64,000 nucleotides of DNA, taken from NCBI GenBank assembly GCA_016650295.1, contig JAENWA010000032.1, positions 62,001 through 126,000 on the forward strand, read 5' to 3'. The translations under genes and the position numbers were made by a program. Shown piece by piece: positions 5,308-31,417 of the stretch. This DNA is from Desulfuromonadales bacterium. GTDB taxonomy: Bacteria; Desulfobacterota; Desulfuromonadia; Geobacterales; Pseudopelobacteraceae. The notes below the pieces were generated by a model. It saw only the letters and a list, made by a program, of their open reading frames with translations, was not told where the DNA came from and searched no databases. Each line of letters begins with the position of its first letter. Position 1 is the first letter of the stretch.

Positions 5308-5405
5308 TGGCGGAAGCACATGGGAATCGAACCCACCGAGGAAATTTCTCATCCCCTCCACCGGTTTTGAAGACCGGGCCGCCCACCAGCGACGGACGTG
5401 CTTCC
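5308..5405 (-). tRNA. selC: tRNA-Sec (anticodon UCA)
   Basis: A 98-nt minus-strand tRNA begins GGAAGCACG and ends CGTGCTTCC-complementary with an encoded CCA (CATGTGCTTCCGCCA). The anticodon arm is CCGGT-CTTCAAA-ACCGG, which places UCA at plus-strand positions 5368-5370 (TGA). The long variable arm (about GGAGGGGATGAG...CCTC) and the length above 90 nt are typical of selenocysteine tRNA. GGTTCGATTCC forms the T loop. With selB downstream, it means this genome reads some UGA codons as selenocysteine. No selenoprotein gene was recognised inside the window. Confidence 0.96.
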
Positions 5406-24473: not shown

Positions 24474-24553
24474 AAATAAAAGGCTGCATTACTGACCGCA
24501 CGGATATCATCATTATCGTCCGTCGGAAAAGTCAATGTTGCTCCAATCTTTAA

Positions 24554-27500
24554 TTATTTCGCCTCAATTGTATTGTTCCTCCATCGATAGATACTTTCCA
24601 TATCCAGTCGCTCACCCCTGAACTCGATCTGCTTCACCGGTTTCGTGCCGTCCCTGCTCTCCCGTTTCAGGTAGCTGCTGATCTCCATCCAGCGCACGTC
24701 GGCAAACTCAAGTTTATCCCTTCCGGAAAACCGTATATTCTCTTCGGAAAATGTACCGATCACCAGCATTACCGGATTCGGCTGTTTCAGCCAGTACTCA
24801 ACCCATCGCTGCTCCTCGATTTTGAAGATTTCGACGCCGTCTTTTTTACGTGTTTTCAAATGCGAGTTCCCCGATTTCAGTTGTAGGTAAATGCGCTTTC
24901 CAGTGCCTTTGCCGTCGTCATCGGTGAATTCCAGTTCCATGTCTATACCCTCATCTTCCGTGGCAGGAATCTCGAAACACTTCTGGTCGGCGCTGGTGAT
25001 GCGAGCCCCCACCTCCAAGGCGAGCAGCTTGCCTTTCCGACGTGAATCCAAGCGGATTGCGTCACCGGCTTGCAGCCCCTCCACCTGCTCTCGCACGGCC
25101 TTGTCAGCAAATAGTTTCTCCAGATCATCCCAGAGGTCGAAGCGTTTCTCGCAGTTGTCGCACTCCACCGTGGCCTGCTCCTTCTTAGCAATCAACTTCT
25201 GCATCAGAACCAGCGGGTTGCCTTTCGGAGTGTGGCAATGCGGACAGACGTAATATCGCAGACGTTCCACCTGTATGCAACGATCCTGCAAGTGGGCATG
25301 TATGTAGTTGGCAAATATCACCTGCTCCTGCTTTGTTACGCTTGGCCCAAAATACACACTGATCTCACCACTGTCGGCACTTTCCCGCACGAGCTTGATC
25401 CCCAAGCGATGGGCACCCGTCAGAGTATCAAAATCCGCCGCATCGCGCCAAGGTTCCTTGAGTTTAAAGGAGTCACTATCGGCCAGTTTGACAACCAGCG
25501 TGGCGTATATGTCATCCAGATATCCTTTTACCTTGTAACTGACGATTATCGACGGATGCTCGACAGCTGTCGGGCGTTCTCGTCCACAATGGCTTGGAAA
25601 GACGAGCTTGTCTCCCTGACGCAGGCACAGACCACGCTCCTCCATCTGCCGTTCCATTTCACGCAGCACCACGCGCTCCTCGGTCTCCGGTAGCCTCTTC
25701 ATTTCCAGAATGCTGCCATCACGCTCGACACTCTGAAACAAGAGCCTCCCTTCGGCGATACTACGTAATGGTATACAGCCAAGTTCTAACGGGTCCTGGC
25801 GCAGTGTTCGGATCACAGCTTGGGCATAGGCATTGACCCACTCCGGTTGCAACAGGATGTAGGTACCGTAGTCCAAGTCCTTTACTGCACCCGGACCATC
25901 CAGCAGACCTAACACTGTCTTCAGCGTATTGTCAGTAAAACGTGATTCCTCGGTCATGCGCCGCCAGAGCAGTTCGCGCAATTCCTTGAAGGTGTGTAGC
26001 ACCTGCCCCTCATCCCGCAGCTTCAGAATCTGGTCCTTGATTAGTTTGAAGATGCGAGGCGATGTGCGCTGTTCCATCAACCCCCAAGGGATGCCTTCAG
26101 TGATTGCCTCACTCAATTCCTCACAGCCTGTGCCGTCCTTGGCGCTGGTTTCAAAGTATCTAAAGCCCTGCTCTTCAGCAAAGCTCCTTAGCTTTGCACG
26201 ACTAGCTTTGAATCCAGCATCGATGCGACCAGCCACAAGAATTAACGGCGTATTGGCAGGTACGCAACGTCGTAGAGCTGTCTGCCACTCGCGGAGCCCC
26301 GGAAGCACATTCTCCTTGTCTGCGTCGAAAAGCAACAGAATCAACGCGGAACGATCCATATAGAGCTGGTGTACCAATCGTTGGTCAGCCTGTCCGCCAA
26401 AGTCCCAGAGCCAGATTTCCTTTTCCAGCTTTTGGGCAACAGCGACTCCAGGTAAAGGCCACTGCGTTGACCAGGCTCCCACAGTGGAACCGTCGCTCGG
26501 TTTCCACTCACCTGTTGCCAACCGGTGCGCCAATCCGGTCTTGCCGGAACTTGTATCACCCACAAGAAGAACCTTAGCGTTCGTGTATTGGACCTGGTCC
26601 TGTGCAGGGCCAAAGGACACGTTACTTACTGCAACTGGCCTCGCCCCGACAACAAACTCCGAGAGGTCCCAGACTAGGATTGTGCCTTTATGATCACCAG
26701 AGAAAGCATGACGTTGATCAGAGCCCCACGCCACGTTCTCGACTTCATCCGTATGACCTTTGAGTACTTGAATACAACGCCCTGTCTCCACGTCCCACAA
26801 CCGTAAAGTTTTGTCCCATGAAGCTGAAAGGACAAAGCGGTTATCAGCGGTCCACGCCAAACTCCTGATCAAGTTCGTGTGGCCTTCAAACACACGTAGA
26901 CAGACTCCCTCCTCTACATTCCACAGTCGCAAGGTTAGGTCATCGGAGCAAGAGAGCGCGAAGTGTTGATTTGCACTCCATACAACACTTCTAATAGGTT
27001 TTGTGTGGCCTTTAAGAACACGCAGGCATCGACCAGTTTTCAAATCCCAAAGTCTAATTGTCGTGTCATGGGAGCCAGAAAGGGCTCGACTATAATCGGC
27101 AGTCCACGATACCGTCCATAGTGAAGCTTTGTGGCCCTTGAACACGCGCAAGCAACGCCCTGAGTTCACATCCCACAACCGCATAGAATTGTCACATGAT
27201 CCAGACAGAGCGTAACGCTGATCCGAACTCCACTCCAAGCTTGGAATGGCATCCTTGTGCCCTTCGAGAACACGCAGGCAGTCACCCGTCTCCACATCTA
27301 AAAGTCGGATCATCCCGTCCGAACAGCCAAAAAGTGCGAGACGTTGGTCAGCGCTCCAAGCTATATTATGATAAGCGCTCGATTTGACTTTGATCACACG
27401 TAGACATCGCCCCGTTTCCAGATTGCATAGCCTTATATTCTCGTCATTACTACCGGAGAGCGCGAGCTTTCCATCCGGACTGAATGCGTAGGATAAGTTA

Positions 27501-28027
27501 CGTTCACGAATGATTAGGTCGAGTTGGATGACTTTTTCTGGAACCTGCTCGCGGTTGGCCTGTAGCTCCCCCTTCGCTGAGAGGTTTTGACGCGTAATGC
27601 CTGCCCCACGTAACTTCACGGGAGGTCGACAGGCTTCAATGAGCTTTGAGTATGCCTGCTCACGCTCTTCCACCAGCCAATTGATGTAAAGAAATTGCGC
27701 CAGAGAGCCTTTGATGGGGGCGTCGTCAAGTCGCAGGGGGATGAAGCGGCGCTCCTTGTTCAGCGGATCGCGAAAACGGAACGTGCCGGCCTCCAACTGC
27801 GCCCACTCCGAGCCGAATGCATCCGCCGACATGCAGAACATGAGCACGCGGGAGCGCTCCAGCCCCTCCTCTATTTTCGCCGGGATGCTGTCGCCCGGCT
27901 TTATTTCCCACTCATCAAACCAGACACTCAGTCCATCCCCACGCAACCGCTCTGCAAGTGGGCGCACGACTTCCTTGTCCTTCGAACTGTGGCTGAGGAA
28001 AACATCATGGGTAAATGTGTCGGGCAT
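24554..28027 (-). CDS. TIR - WD40(x7) - Roc-like GTPase - COR-like - Zn ribbon - DUF4365 protein
   Basis: A 1157-residue multidomain protein. The TIR domain (about 6-140) opens DVFLSHSSKD and keeps a WxxxE pair (W75, E79) at the position of the NADase catalytic Glu. Seven WD40 repeats (about 170-455) form one propeller, with RLWD-type ends. A Ras/Roc-like GTPase (about 480-650) has P-loop GDTSSGKT and DFGGQ switch; the G4 site reads GRID instead of NKxD. A COR-like region follows, then a zinc ribbon (CPHC at 928-931, CDNC at 956-959). The C-terminal domain (about 1015-1100) matches DUF4365, with D1029 and QLK (1049-1051) as candidate nuclease residues. ATG 28027 has AGGTG upstream; an in-frame TTG lies six codons earlier. 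An immune or signalling role is inferred from the TIR and nuclease-like ends. Confidence 0.93.
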   Translation of the reverse strand: MPDTFTHDVFLSHSSKDKEVVRPLAERLRGDGLSVWFDEWEIKPGDSIPAKIEEGLERSRVLMFCMSADAFGSEWAQLEAGTFRFRDPLNKERRFIPLRLDDAPIKGSLAQFLYINWLVEEREQAYSKLIEACRPPVKLRGAGITRQNLSAKGELQANREQVPEKVIQLDLIIRERNLSYAFSPDGKLALSGSNDENIRLCNLETGRCLRVIKVKSSAYHNIAWSADQRLALFGCSDGMIRLLDVETGDCLRVLEGHKDAIPSLEWSSDQRYALSGSCDNSMRLWDVNSGRCLRVFKGHKASLWTVSWTADYSRALSGSHDTTIRLWDLKTGRCLRVLKGHTKPIRSVVWSANQHFALSCSDDLTLRLWNVEEGVCLRVFEGHTNLIRSLAWTADNRFVLSASWDKTLRLWDVETGRCIQVLKGHTDEVENVAWGSDQRHAFSGDHKGTILVWDLSEFVVGARPVAVSNVSFGPAQDQVQYTNAKVLLVGDTSSGKTGLAHRLATGEWKPSDGSTVGAWSTQWPLPGVAVAQKLEKEIWLWDFGGQADQRLVHQLYMDRSALILLLFDADKENVLPGLREWQTALRRCVPANTPLILVAGRIDAGFKASRAKLRSFAEEQGFRYFETSAKDGTGCEELSEAITEGIPWGLMEQRTSPRIFKLIKDQILKLRDEGQVLHTFKELRELLWRRMTEESRFTDNTLKTVLGLLDGPGAVKDLDYGTYILLQPEWVNAYAQAVIRTLRQDPLELGCIPLRSIAEGRLLFQSVERDGSILEMKRLPETEERVVLREMERQMEERGLCLRQGDKLVFPSHCGRERPTAVEHPSIIVSYKVKGYLDDIYATLVVKLADSDSFKLKEPWRDAADFDTLTGAHRLGIKLVRESADSGEISVYFGPSVTKQEQVIFANYIHAHLQDRCIQVERLRYYVCPHCHTPKGNPLVLMQKLIAKKEQATVECDNCEKRFDLWDDLEKLFADKAVREQVEGLQAGDAIRLDSRRKGKLLALEVGARITSADQKCFEIPATEDEGIDMELEFTDDDGKGTGKRIYLQLKSGNSHLKTRKKDGVEIFKIEEQRWVEYWLKQPNPVMLVIGTFSEENIRFSGRDKLEFADVRWMEISSYLKRESRDGTKPVKQIEFRGERLDMESIYRWRNNTIEAK

Positions 28028-28110
28028 AAAAGGCACCTGTGTCAATTTGGAGTTTTATTCAGCAATTAATGGAAATACCTCCTCGAACTCCGGAGGGCTA
28101 AACACCTTAC

Positions 28111-28854
28111 TTACATCAACCCAAGCTGCACTTGCCTCTGATGTTGCCTGACTTTCGGCATCTGTTCCCACGTCCTACCCTGCAATTCCTTACCAGCCTT
28201 TTTCTTGCGAAAGCCTCCCCACTGCTTGAAAAAGAAAGGAACCTGCGCTTGCAGGCACTGGTCTTTGATCTCCACCACCCACTCTTCCTGCATCGGTCGC
28301 GCGCCAGGACCGGACTCTCCACCGACAATGACCCAATCAATCCCTTGCAGATCAAGTGAGTTCACAGGCCCAAGCAACGGCTCCATGGACAGAAATTTCA
28401 CCTGTGCCCCGGTTGCCCGCAGGTTATCAACACGATATGTGTAGTCGGCATTTTCGACGCTCACCCCCATCCAGATATTGGGTGACCACACAAGTTCCGG
28501 GCTGAGTTCCATCAACCGTTTGGAACGCTTTGTAAGAACCTGAAACGTATGCCAGTGCGCCCGGCGCATGACGTCAAAGATCTGTTTGATGAACTCTGTC
28601 GGCACTTGATCCAAAAACAGATCCGACATGGAATTGACAAAGATGGTTTGCGGTTTTTTCCAGGACAGCGGCAATTCCAGTGAACGGGGATGTAGGGCAA
28701 GCTCGAAACCCGTGACATAGTTCGGCTGCCCCATCGCCTTGAGACGTTTTGCCATACGCTCGGCATAGCAGTGCGTGCAGCCGGGACTTATCTTGGTACA
28801 GCCGGTTACCGGATTCCAGGTGCTGCCGGTCCATTCGATAGCCGATTTGGCCAT
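28111..28854 (-). CDS. Three-Cys-motif protein (DUF5131, phage Gp37/Gp68 family)
   Basis: A 247-residue protein of the Gp37/Gp68 family (DUF5131, PF07505). The N-terminus [14 protein letters not shown] continues to the three-cysteine motif [12 protein letters not shown] (CX6CX2C), which resembles a radical SAM cluster site. [29 protein letters not shown] and [14 protein letters not shown] are the other family blocks. Its molecular activity is not established. It lies 1 nt after the stop of the tcmP frame and 83 bp ahead of the TIR/WD40 gene, all minus strand. AAGGA precedes the ATG at 7 nt. Confidence 0.9.
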
Positions 28855-28855
28855 T

Positions 28856-29740
28856 TTATTTTCCTTTCAAAATGTGCCCCGCGATTTTCAAGGCAATCGG
28901 TGCGCCCTTTTTGTTTCCGCAGGCAAAGCACAATAGGTACAACGGGTTGTTTTTCGAGTTATACAGTGGCAACGGCTTCTTCGCAACGCCCGCAAATACC
29001 GATTCCAGGCGCTTTACAAAATAATCGGCAATCTGCTTCAAGTCGCCGGTCTTTCGCGTGACCTCCACGTCATCAAACAGGCCGGGCATTACTTCCTTCT
29101 TGTAAAACATTTCTCGCCATCCCGGCTCACCGAAAATCGAGTCGAGCTTCTTCTGCCAAGCCTCTGGAATGTTTCCGTCCTATGTCAACAGGCGGTTGAC
29201 ACCGACTCCCAGAGGAAACAGATACCACATATCTATGGCTTCAATCTTGGCCACTGTCTCTATGGTTTGCCATGTAACATTCATGCCGAACGGGTCCAGA
29301 AAAAGGACTCCTCGCAGGTTCCTACGTCTTGTCCAACTTTTGCAAATATGCCTTATAGCTGTGTTGGCATCCTCATTGACAACATAAATGTCTTTCGCTT
29401 TGTCGGGATAATCAAGTTTCAGTTTCTCCAATTCTGCGCATTTTATGGCGTCCTGTTCAATAAAATAATACTCTGCAAAACGAGGCGATGTCTCCAGTGC
29501 GATTCTTGCTGAACCAGCGTGAAGCGCTTCAGCATCTTCGTCAAGCAGATCGAAAGACCAAAGTCCCTGTTTTTTGTCGTCACTCTTGACGTTTCTATAT
29601 CCGGTACCGGCAAAGGCGTCGATGTATATCAGGCTGAAGGTAGTATTCTTGAGAGCGTTAGTGTAGGCGGTCAGATAGCTGCTGACACGGGCCAGTTTCT
29701 CTTGTGTCCAGTCGCCGCCGAAATTCTGAAGGTCAGCCAT
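28856..29740 (-). pseudogene. tcmP: Three-Cys-motif partner protein TcmP, split by an in-frame amber codon
   Basis: The frame 29740-28856 (295 codons) reads as one TcmP-like protein except for a single TAG at 29182-29180. The first 186 residues (start ADLQNFGGDWTQEKLARV, with YIDAFAGTGY and GVLFLDPFGMNVTW, a methyltransferase-like nucleotide fold) run to GVGVNRLLT. After the stop the same frame continues DGNIPEAWQKKLD and about 95 further residues to the natural end. Family members have a sense codon here, often Lys or similar. GGAGG precedes the ATG at 5 nt. Either a recent nonsense mutation, a sequencing error, or amber read-through explains it. An ATG at 29110 could restart an 84-residue C-terminal piece. 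Confidence 0.85.
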
Positions 29741-29880
29741 TATCGCCTCCGAAACATCCCGTTCACCATTTATAATCCACTAAGGTTTCGACTATATACA
29801 CCACACCCTGCCAGTCGTGCCATCAAATTCAGATCGCGTAACGAGGAGAACATCATTAGAATTTTTACAAGACAGTTTAA

Positions 29881-30966
29881 TCACCTATCCACCCACTCCC
29901 CCAGATACGGACTCACCTTCATCAACATCCCGCGCAGGTTTTTGTAATCCACCAGTTGCTCATGCTGCAACCGGCCGAGCACAATGCCGGGATGGCGGCC
30001 CTGGCTTACTGCAAAACGGGTAATTACGGACTTGGAGAAATACGGCTTGGCCTCGCTGACAAAGGCCTTGAACGCCCGATCATCCAGCAGCCATCCTCCT
30101 GCCAGCCGGTTGGCGTCTTTCTCCTCGCCGTCCACATGATCGCCGCCGTACAGATCGTCCAGATAGCTGCCCTTGTGTTTGAGGAAGATATGGGCCAGTT
30201 CGTGGAGCAGGGTGAACCAGAAGGAGTCGATGCGGTCATAGCGCAGGGTGAGGGCAATGATCGGATTTTTACCGCACATCAACTTGGCGCCGTCCAGAAA
30301 GGTCTTGTCCAGGTGTCCCACGATGACGAAGTGCACCCCGGCATCGGCCAGCAGTCCGGGCAGACGGGCCACATCCTGCTCGTGAGCGCTGCAGGCCAGG
30401 ATTGCAGGGAGTATTTTCTCAAGACGTGCTTGGTCGAATCTGGCCACCGTCCGGGCTGCCGCCGCCTGTTCAACCCGGCGGACCCAGGCAATTTGGGCAT
30501 TCAGCTCCGGGCCTCTCTGCACGGCATGACGGAAGCTGACCGCCAGCTTGCCCATTTCGTCGGGCGAGGAGATGCCCATGAAGGCATACACCGCCTGTTC
30601 CAGCTCCTCGAAGGATGATCCCGGCCGTATCCAGCCGCGCTTGAGCAATTCCGTCACCGGAGCGAGTGAATACAGACGGCTCTTGCGGGCTATGTCCTTG
30701 CCGTCCTTGGCGGAGCGGGCCAATGCCAGCCGGAAATTAGCCTCCAGATTGATCCAGAGTTCCGCCGACGTGCCGAAGGCCTCGGCCAGCTCCAGGGCCG
30801 TTTCAGGGGTAATTTGCTTGCTCCCCTTTACAATCTCGTTGATAGCCTGGGGAGGGCGTCCCATGATTCCGGCCAGGTCTTTCTGGGTCCAGCCCCGCGC
30901 TTCCAGTTCACGCGTCAGAATCCATCCCGGTGCTATGGCGCGGGCAGGCTGAATCGTTGTCTCCAT
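29881..30966 (-). CDS. higA: HigA-type antitoxin fused to an ImmA/IrrE metallopeptidase domain
   Basis: A 361-residue protein. Residues about 10-85 are a HigA/XRE helix-turn-helix (GWILTRELEARGWTQKDLAG, ETALELAEAFGTSAELWINL). The C-terminal half is an M78 (ImmA/IrrE) peptidase with the zinc motif LLHELAHIF, HExxH, and a downstream Glu-rich region. HigA would neutralise HigB and repress the operon; the peptidase domain suggests regulated self-cleavage or cleavage of a partner, as in phage and stress-response switches. The ATG at 30966 has AAAGGA upstream; a TTG six codons earlier is in frame. higB ends 14 nt before. Confidence 0.92.
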   Translation of the reverse strand: METTIQPARAIAPGWILTRELEARGWTQKDLAGIMGRPPQAINEIVKGSKQITPETALELAEAFGTSAELWINLEANFRLALARSAKDGKDIARKSRLYSLAPVTELLKRGWIRPGSSFEELEQAVYAFMGISSPDEMGKLAVSFRHAVQRGPELNAQIAWVRRVEQAAAARTVARFDQARLEKILPAILACSAHEQDVARLPGLLADAGVHFVIVGHLDKTFLDGAKLMCGKNPIIALTLRYDRIDSFWFTLLHELAHIFLKHKGSYLDDLYGGDHVDGEEKDANRLAGGWLLDDRAFKAFVSEAKPYFSKSVITRFAVSQGRHPGIVLGRLQHEQLVDYKNLRGMLMKVSPYLGEWVDR

Positions 30967-30980
30967 CTGAAATTCCTTTC

Positions 30981-31277
30981 TCAATGGTAATCCTCGATTG
31001 AGATTACCAGCACATACGTGCCGTTTCTGTCCTTTTCCAGCGTCACAATCAGGCGGAACTGCCGGTTGAGACGTAGCGAATGTTCGTGCTTCCGTTTCCC
31101 GGAAAGTTTCTCGAAATGGAAACCCTTTTGCGCGTACAGGTCGCGTTCGTCACGGGCAGCGGCAATGACGGCCATGGTTTCAAAGAATGCGTCGACCACC
31201 TCGGGCTCATAGCGGTGTGCGCCCTTTTCAGAGGTGTAAAGCTCTTCCAGCCTTTTTGTCTTGAAGTGAAAACGCAT
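30981..31277 (-). CDS. higB: HigB-type RelE/ParE superfamily toxin
   Basis: A 98-residue HigB-like toxin preceding its antitoxin, the order typical of higBA. Family features are the FKTKRLEELYTSEKGAHRY start, GFHFEKLSGKRKHEHSLRLN, FRLIVTL and the C-terminal strand YVLVISIEDYH. HigB toxins cleave translated mRNA on the ribosome. The start has AGG at 9-nt spacing within the short leader after the predicted -10 box, so the transcript would have almost no 5' leader. Confidence 0.9.
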   Translation of the reverse strand: MRFHFKTKRLEELYTSEKGAHRYEPEVVDAFFETMAVIAAARDERDLYAQKGFHFEKLSGKRKHEHSLRLNRQFRLIVTLEKDRNGTYVLVISIEDYH

Positions 31278-31280
31278 AAT

Positions 31281-31342
31281 TACAACCTATTGTATCCTGA
31301 ACCGCATTTATTTCAACTGTAAAATTCACCCAAAGGGTGAAT
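31281..31342 (-). promoter_or_regulatory. higBA promoter with two candidate operators
   Basis: On the minus strand TTGAAA (31316-31311) and TACAAT (31294-31289) are separated by 16 nt, both 5/6 matches to sigma-70 boxes. The palindrome TACAACCTATTGTA (31281-31294) covers the -10 box, and is of the kind HigA repressors bind. A second perfect palindrome, ATTCACCCAAAGGGTGAAT (31324-31342), lies just upstream of the -35 box. Autoregulation by HigA is inferred. Confidence 0.55.
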
Positions 31343-31361
31343 ATAATACTTTTATTCACAC

Positions 31362-31390
31362 AAAAAAAGCCGGAATCTCTCGATACCGGC
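31362..31390 (-). terminator. Terminator after the YhaM-like gene
   Basis: The minus strand shows GCCGGTATC, a 4-nt loop and GATTCCGGC (31390-31369, one mismatch), then seven T residues (31368-31362). It ends the transcript of the YhaM-like gene and insulates higBA. Confidence 0.8.
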
Positions 31391-31417
31391 CTCGCCCAAT
31401 AGTCACACACATCCTTA

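What the first reader, a model, noticed from the sequence alone, without database searches (positions are those of the whole stretch)
24554..28027. TIR-WD40-Roc/COR-zinc-DUF4365 megaprotein
One gene joins a TIR domain that keeps its catalytic-position Glu, a full seven-blade WD40 propeller, a Ras/Roc-like GTPase, a COR-like region, a zinc ribbon and a PD-(D/E)xK-like DUF4365 domain. TIR domains in bacteria consume NAD in abortive-infection systems, WD40 and Roc parts suit sensing and switching, and DUF4365 suggests a second nucleic-acid-directed effector. A protein with both effector types and a GTPase switch in between would be a new architecture for immunity if confirmed. The G4 site is GRID rather than NKxD, which may alter nucleotide choice.
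Basis: partly seen in the sequence, partly recalled or inferred. Interest (0 to 1): 0.85.

Follow-up and report, generated by a model that had tools for sequence, protein, structure and literature searches.

The report
Two-weapon bacterial immune-receptor-like protein family
One bacterial gene encodes a single chain that looks like an animal or plant immune receptor: a seven-bladed sensor, a Parkinson-kinase-type GTPase switch and two killing enzymes (a NAD-destroying domain at the front, a DNA/RNA-cutting domain at the back). Many unrelated bacteria and some archaea carry the same chain with both active sites kept, so it is probably an unnamed self-contained anti-phage suicide system, though nobody has tested it.

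Summary
ORF 28027-24554 (-), 1157 aa, is TIR – seven-bladed WD40 propeller – Roc GTPase – divergent COR – Cys4 zinc ribbon – DUF4365. The order is not a one-off: 42 of the 79 nearest GTPase-core relatives carry TIR and DUF4365 in one ORF, across many bacterial phyla and archaea. The TIR catalytic Glu is invariant (52/52), and the D, Q and K that make the DUF4365 (DREN) nuclease of SPARDA work are kept (73/74, 69/74, 73/74). The propeller is the fast-evolving part. In members with near-identical repeats, the four most variable of 42 repeat positions are exactly those under positive selection in the fungal receptor HET-E. The gene sits in a 6.9-kb insert with two defence-candidate genes and a HigBA-like pair; three same-genus genomes have the empty site. 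Best reading: a self-contained NLR-like abortive-infection receptor whose Roc-COR switch assembles both effectors. The GRID G4 site is family-wide, not special. Against: no activity was tested, defence genes are not enriched beside homologues, and GTPase-COR (AP-GTPase) conflict proteins with swappable effectors are already described. The WD40-sensor, dual-effector version is a new variant of that known kind.

The parts
24554..28027 (-). whole gene, 1157 aa, ATG start at 28027 (TTG at 28045 also in frame)
27638..28003 (-). TIR domain, residues ~9-130
   Evidence: Pfam TIR_2 E 5e-29; best solved relatives are AbTIR-type NADases
27791..27793 (-). TIR catalytic-position Glu, E79, in SxWxxxE
   Evidence: 52/52 homologues
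26648..27541 (-). seven-bladed WD40 propeller, residues ~163-460 (putative sensor)
   Evidence: fastest-evolving part
26072..26587 (-). Roc/Ras-like GTPase, residues 481-652
   Evidence: Pfam Roc/Ras; Rab-like fold Z 24
26537..26560 (-). P-loop GDTSSGKT (residues 490-497)
   Evidence: G490, G495, K496 in 82/82
26219..26230 (-). G4 site GRID (residues 600-603)
   Evidence: family form [GSA][RQ]xD, Asp 85/86
25268..26071 (-). divergent COR-like region, residues 653-920
   Evidence: fold match to CtRoco, LRRK2, MbRoco2; hhalign to COR; no Pfam COR hit
25151..25246 (-). Cys4 zinc ribbon (C928, C931, C956, C959)
   Evidence: conserved in at least 77/81 at each position
24575..25075 (-). DUF4365 / DREN PD-(D/E)xK-like nuclease domain, residues ~985-1151
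   Evidence: Pfam 2e-17; profile match to solved DUF4365 and DREN-APAZ chains
24875..24943 (-). DUF4365 catalytic residues D1029, Q1049, K1051
   Evidence: 73/74, 69/74, 73/74; equivalents of D41/Q60/K62 of NbaSPARDA
24474..31417 (.). 6.9-kb island between nfo and a yhaM-like gene
   Evidence: nfo and yhaM-like genes are adjacent in three same-genus genomes
28111..28854 (-). DUF5131 gene (PADLOC candidate PDC-M41B), 84 bp upstream, same strand
28858..29740 (-). TcmP (PDC-M41A) reading frame interrupted by an in-frame TAG after residue 186
29881..30984 (-). HigA-like antitoxin with M78 peptidase domain (PADLOC PD-Lambda-2_B, 4.5e-48)
30981..31277 (-). HigB-like toxin

Best explanation
A self-contained, single-gene, NLR-like abortive-infection receptor. 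The seven-bladed propeller recognises a phage- or invader-associated protein through the upper-face positions that diversify. Recognition changes the Roc-COR GTPase switch (nucleotide state and dimerisation, as in other Roco proteins), which brings chains together. Clustering turns on the N-terminal TIR (NAD+ hydrolysis or conversion) and the C-terminal DUF4365/DREN nuclease (collateral DNA/RNA cutting), so the infected cell dies or stops growing. Shown here: domain order, conserved active sites, fold, fast-evolving propeller, hypervariable positions, scattered distribution over phyla, insertion of the island. Inferred: ligand, oligomerisation, that both enzymes are active and fire together, and that phage is the target.
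For: Both active sites are kept over deep divergence: TIR E79 52/52; DUF4365 D1029 73/74, Q1049 69/74, K1051 73/74; Roc P-loop 82/82 and DxxGQ 86/86. The DUF4365 profile matches solved SPARDA nuclease chains, and D41/Q60/K62 are catalytic in NbaSPARDA, where tetramerisation switches the nuclease on (PMC12205087). The TIR profile's best solved matches include AbTIR, a NAD+ hydrolase. The propeller evolves faster than every other domain: window vs L037 TIR 77, WD40 42, Roc 86, COR 81, DUF4365 79% identity, and it is lowest in nearly all other close pairs. In 20 members with similar repeats, positions 5, 7, 23 and 25 are the top four of 42 (1 of 111,930 sets), the same sites, two residues out of register, as 7, 9, 25, 27 of HET-E, which are under positive selection at the binding face (PMC2873952). 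Phyla are intermixed on the tree. The island has an empty site in three relatives. No conserved partner gene, which fits a one-gene system.
Against: No activity or phage phenotype was tested. Defence-type genes are not visibly enriched among immediate neighbours compared with genes 4.5-10 kb away (member counts are approximate). About 11 of the 79 relatives have an apparently complete start and no N-terminal TIR, so TIR is not essential to the machine. Ligand-binding positions of WD40 repeats vary in many families, so the hypervariable pattern is suggestive rather than unique. Inter-domain arrangement in the full model is uncertain (pTM 0.52).
Confidence: 0.62

Rival explanations
1. Only the DUF4365 nuclease executes; the TIR is mainly an oligomerisation scaffold or an optional accessory that is exchanged between lineages.
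For: DUF4365 identity tracks Roc-COR (rank correlations 0.78-0.82) while TIR tracks it less well (0.50-0.53). About 11 relatives with an apparently complete N-terminus lack TIR but nearly all keep DUF4365.
Against: The catalytic-position Glu is invariant in 52/52 TIRs, which a pure scaffold would not need.
Confidence: 0.18
2. A regulated cell-death, kin-recognition or signalling protein not aimed at phage (for example colony-level or stress-triggered death).
For: Related predicted conflict systems are most common in multicellular bacteria (PMC7159879, PMC8195603); no strong defence-island signal across the family.
Against: Many carriers are not known for multicellular life; the gene sits in an island with phage-defence candidates here and directly before a type I restriction operon in L025.
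Confidence: 0.15
3. An intracellular anti-plasmid or anti-mobile-element system: the zinc ribbon and DUF4365 sense and cut invading DNA directly, and the propeller is only a scaffold.
For: DUF4365 nucleases in short-Argonaute systems act against invading DNA (PMC10810196); a conserved Cys4 ribbon lies next to the nuclease.
Against: The propeller, not the nuclease or ribbon, is the diversifying part.
Confidence: 0.05

Closest known systems
Prokaryotic AP-GTPase (Roc)-COR conflict systems (Kaur et al. 2021, PMC8195603; also Kaur et al. 2020, PMC7159879)
   Same: Ras-like Roc GTPase plus COR, swappable effector domains including TIR, sporadic distribution
   Different: Described with N-terminal leucine-rich repeats and one variable C-terminal domain; here a WD40 propeller, an N-terminal TIR, a zinc ribbon and a near-constant DUF4365
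Bacterial and eukaryotic Roco proteins (CtRoco, MbRoco2, LRRK2, DAPK1)
   Same: Roc followed by a COR-like fold
   Different: COR too divergent for Pfam PF16095; prokaryotic Rocos reviewed so far are LRR-RocCOR (PMC6337361)
SPARDA DREN/DUF4365-APAZ nucleases
   Same: DUF4365 with matching catalytic D, Q, K
   Different: No Argonaute or APAZ; activation by a GTPase receptor rather than a guide RNA is inferred
Fungal HNWD receptors HET-E/D/R
   Same: WD40 sensor with high internal conservation and the same four hypervariable positions; NTPase switch; N-terminal death effector
   Different: NACHT not Roc; HET domain not TIR; no nuclease
Short-Argonaute proteins with REase-TIR double effectors
   Same: TIR and PD-(D/E)xK-type nuclease in one chain (PMC10810196; PADLOC Aga_REase-TIR-PNTD1-PNTD2 hit)
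   Different: Different recognition module

Membership tests
Roco / AP-GTPase-COR proteins | Roc GTPase with P-loop, DxxG and G4 Asp | tested here: met
   Pfam Roc 6e-19; P-loop 82/82, DxxGQ 86/86, G4 Asp 85/86
Roco / AP-GTPase-COR proteins | COR domain directly after Roc | tested here: inconclusive
   No Pfam COR hit; fold alignment over 520 columns to CtRoco RocCOR; hhalign 48%, E 2e-4, collinear
Roco / AP-GTPase-COR proteins | N-terminal leucine-rich repeats (prokaryotic Rocos as described) | tested here: not met
   WD40 propeller instead
Catalytic TIR NADase | conserved catalytic Glu | tested here: met
   E79, 52/52; aligns to AbTIR
Catalytic TIR NADase | NAD+ hydrolysis or conversion | not testable with these tools
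   needs an assay
DUF4365/DREN nuclease | Asp, Gln, Lys active site of the PD-(D/E)xK-like fold | tested here: met
   D1029, Q1049, K1051 conserved; profile match to 9qbq, 9qbp, 9jsb; residues as in NbaSPARDA
SPARDA | short Argonaute and APAZ domain | tested here: not met
   neither in the protein nor in the four neighbouring island genes
NLR / STAND receptors | NACHT or NB-ARC ATPase | tested here: not met
   Roc GTPase instead; one distant relative, L063, has an NB-ARC-like domain fused after DUF4365
Experimentally proven anti-phage system | phage protection | not testable with these tools
   needs plaque assays

The most novel reading that the evidence does not exclude
A widespread, unnamed class of one-gene bacterial and archaeal immune receptor in which one Roco GTPase switch fires two chemically different effectors at once (TIR NAD depletion and DREN collateral nuclease), sensing through a propeller that diversifies at the same four sites as fungal HET-E. 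To my knowledge it would be the first prokaryotic Roco with a known immune job.
Probability: 0.4. Interest if true: 0.8.

Novelty: new variant of a known kind. Interest (0 to 1): 0.58.

Why it matters
The physiological role of bacterial Roco proteins, relatives of the switch in the Parkinson kinase LRRK2, is an open question (PMC6337361). This family offers a concrete and testable answer: immune receptors with a readable output (NAD loss, nucleic acid cutting). It would also be a case of one switch controlling two orthogonal killing enzymes, which would make phage escape by blocking one effector harder. The matching hypervariable sites in bacterial and fungal propellers would point to a common way of making recognition repertoires from WD40 repeats.

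Tried and rejected
Fusion or assembly artefact: rejected, order recurs in 42 relatives with both effectors in one ORF. GRID as unusual nucleotide specificity: rejected, family-wide with Asp kept. Conserved operon partner: none found among 713 neighbour ORFs; TcmP/DUF5131 is not shared with other loci. Defence-island enrichment: near neighbours and far neighbours both give scattered PADLOC hits; 20 near neighbours scanned singly gave one weak hit. Presence in the window's own family via G021 (L004, L008): set aside, the contig carrying L004 is probably Chlorobiaceae contamination (asd 95% identical to Chlorobiaceae, GC 0.49), and L008 lies on another short contig of the same assembly. Viral contigs: no relative found with a 480-aa query. 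The pdb_via run listed only Rab-like GTPases and so says nothing about COR or DUF4365. L046, where a WD40-Roc-DUF4365 protein lies behind VMAP-C and AAA genes, may be a MoxR-VMAP ternary system but could be a repeat-driven misassembly, so it is not used as evidence.

Full report
Observation. The minus-strand ORF 28027-24554 encodes 1157 residues from an ATG that matches the start of its homologues; residue numbers below count from that ATG. Pfam finds TIR_2, WD40, Roc/Ras and DUF4365 well above cut-off. COR was not found by Pfam. AlphaFold2 with 41 sequences gives a good model of every domain (mean pLDDT 84) but an uncertain arrangement between them (pTM 0.52). The propeller has 28 strands, seven blades, and superposes on a seven-bladed bacterial propeller (TM 0.95 to 5yzv). 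A second model of Roc to the C-terminus (677 residues, pLDDT 88, pTM 0.76) has LRRK2, the Roc-COR of Chlorobium CtRoco and MbRoco2 among its best solved matches, over 345-563 columns, so the region after Roc is COR-like although divergent; a profile comparison with canonical bacterial CORs is collinear but weak.

The family. A search of 97 genomes related to the window's and a broader search of 395 genomes of its phylum found only a few relatives of this length; G183 (L025) is a full-length match, 51% identical over Roc to DUF4365. A scan of 84,980 species genomes with the Roc-COR-zinc region found 295 relatives, 79 loci kept. TIR and Roc share an ORF in 46; in 42 of those the ORF also holds DUF4365; in 8 more a TIR lies in a neighbouring frame just upstream; 14 are cut at their start by the contig end; about 11 with an apparently complete start have no N-terminal TIR (counts by reading those tables). 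Where the C-terminus can be seen, DUF4365 is there in all but two: L107 has a metallophosphoesterase and L110 a C-terminal TIR. More distant members carry a metallophosphoesterase (L005; Nostoc C057, apparently with a CHAT-like tail, by eye) or a C-terminal TIR (Calothrix NIES-4101). The 79 kept are the best of 295 and were found with a DUF4365-rich alignment, so these fractions are not family-wide frequencies. On a maximum-likelihood tree the phyla are thoroughly mixed; the window's nearest relatives are an acidobacterium, Nitrotoga, a gemmatimonad and a planctomycete. MAG contamination may explain some placements: the L004/L098 contig is one such case.

Active sites. TIR E79 is invariant (52/52) in SxWxxxE, and the best solved relatives are AbTIR and other bacterial TIRs. 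DUF4365 keeps D1029 (73/74), Q1049 (69/74) and K1051 (73/74) and matches solved DUF4365 and DREN-APAZ chains. In NbaSPARDA the equivalents D41, Q60 and K62 are catalytic and the domain becomes active when it tetramerises (PMC12205087); Q62/K64 are the corresponding residues in TmuRE (PMC10810196). Roc keeps its P-loop (82/82), DxxG with the following Gln (86/86), and the G4 Asp (85/86).

Sensor. Per-domain identity between the window and its closest relative L037 is TIR 77, WD40 42, Roc 86, COR 81, DUF4365 79%; the propeller is the least conserved domain in nearly all other close pairs too, and 42% is not far above the 31% seen between distant members. DUF4365 distances follow Roc and COR (rank correlation 0.78-0.82) better than TIR distances do (0.50-0.53), suggesting that the nuclease belongs to the core and that TIR is exchanged more often. 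Several members have nearly identical repeats inside one propeller. In 20 of them the four most variable positions of the 42-residue repeat, counted from GH, are 5, 7, 23 and 25: the best of all 111,930 possible sets. In Podospora HET-E and its relatives the four positions under positive selection are 7, 9, 25 and 27, at the interaction face (PMC2873952); the spacing is the same and the register differs by two residues. Variation at the ligand face is common in WD40 proteins, so this supports a sensor but does not prove immunity.

Context. The window gene lies in a 6.9-kb stretch (24474-31417) with DUF5131 and TcmP (PADLOC candidate PDC-M41) and a HigBA-like pair, all on the same strand. In three same-genus genomes the flanking nfo and yhaM-like genes are neighbours, 40-92 bp apart, so the stretch is an insertion here or a loss there; three empty relatives favour insertion. 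The TcmP frame is broken by an in-frame TAG. In G183 the homologue is followed by an AAA_13 ATPase and a complete type I restriction system. Across the family no partner gene recurs, and immediate neighbours show PADLOC hits about as scattered as genes 4.5-10 kb away. Defence context is therefore suggestive locally and not shown generally.

Mechanism. From established knowledge, TIR and DREN effectors are both activated by clustering, and Roco proteins change their oligomeric state with nucleotide. The simplest model is ligand binding by the propeller, a Roc-COR switch, clustering, then NAD loss and collateral nucleic-acid cutting. Conservation of both active sites in dozens of distant members argues that both are used. 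Ligand, assembly and phage as the target are inference.

Relation to known systems. Kaur and colleagues described prokaryotic AP-GTPase (Roc)-COR conflict systems with LRRs and at least 24 alternative C-terminal domains (PMC8195603), and AP-GTPases with COR in MoxR-vWA systems (PMC7159879). The reviewed prokaryotic Rocos are LRR-RocCOR (PMC6337361). Text searches of the open library found no description of a WD40 Roco with TIR and DUF4365; subscription papers, most preprints and figure panels were not searched. No PADLOC, NCBIfam or Pfam model names the whole protein. I therefore call it a new variant of a known kind.

Noticed in passing
window 28858-29740 (-): TcmP gene of a PDC-M41 (TcmP-DUF5131) defence candidate is interrupted by a single in-frame TAG after residue 186; pseudogene, sequencing error or recent inactivation
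   Followed up: partly
L028:4468-7893 (-) = G000:C32 about 30.5-33.9 kb, 54 kb from the window gene on the same contig: A canonical LRR-Roc-COR-A-COR-B Roco in the same genome, so two different Roc-COR proteins are carried close together
   Followed up: partly
L046:3078-11061: TIR-WD40 fragment, then Mrr-like/VMAP-C, AAA and a 1517-aa protein with an unknown 530-aa N-terminus plus WD40-Roc-COR-DUF4365: possible MoxR-VMAP ternary system or a misassembly
   Followed up: partly
L063:2-4156: WD40-Roc-COR-DUF4365 fused to a further NB-ARC/AAA-like domain at the C-terminus (two NTPase switches in one chain)
   Followed up: partly
L023:5956-10287 (Nostoc sp. C057 plasmid): WD40-Roc-COR protein with a metallophosphoesterase followed by a CHAT-like (caspase-type) region, again apparently two effectors
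   Followed up: partly
L026 / L098 (G021:C25): Geobacteraceae MAG contig with asd 95% identical to Chlorobiaceae: probable binning contamination; in three Chlorobiaceae loci the receptor gene also lies downstream of asd
   Followed up: yes
L092, L100, L102, L110: A second related gene lies next to the receptor gene (34-784 bp away), suggesting tandem duplication
   Followed up: no
window 5308-5405 (-): tRNA-Sec gene: the organism probably makes selenoproteins
   Followed up: no
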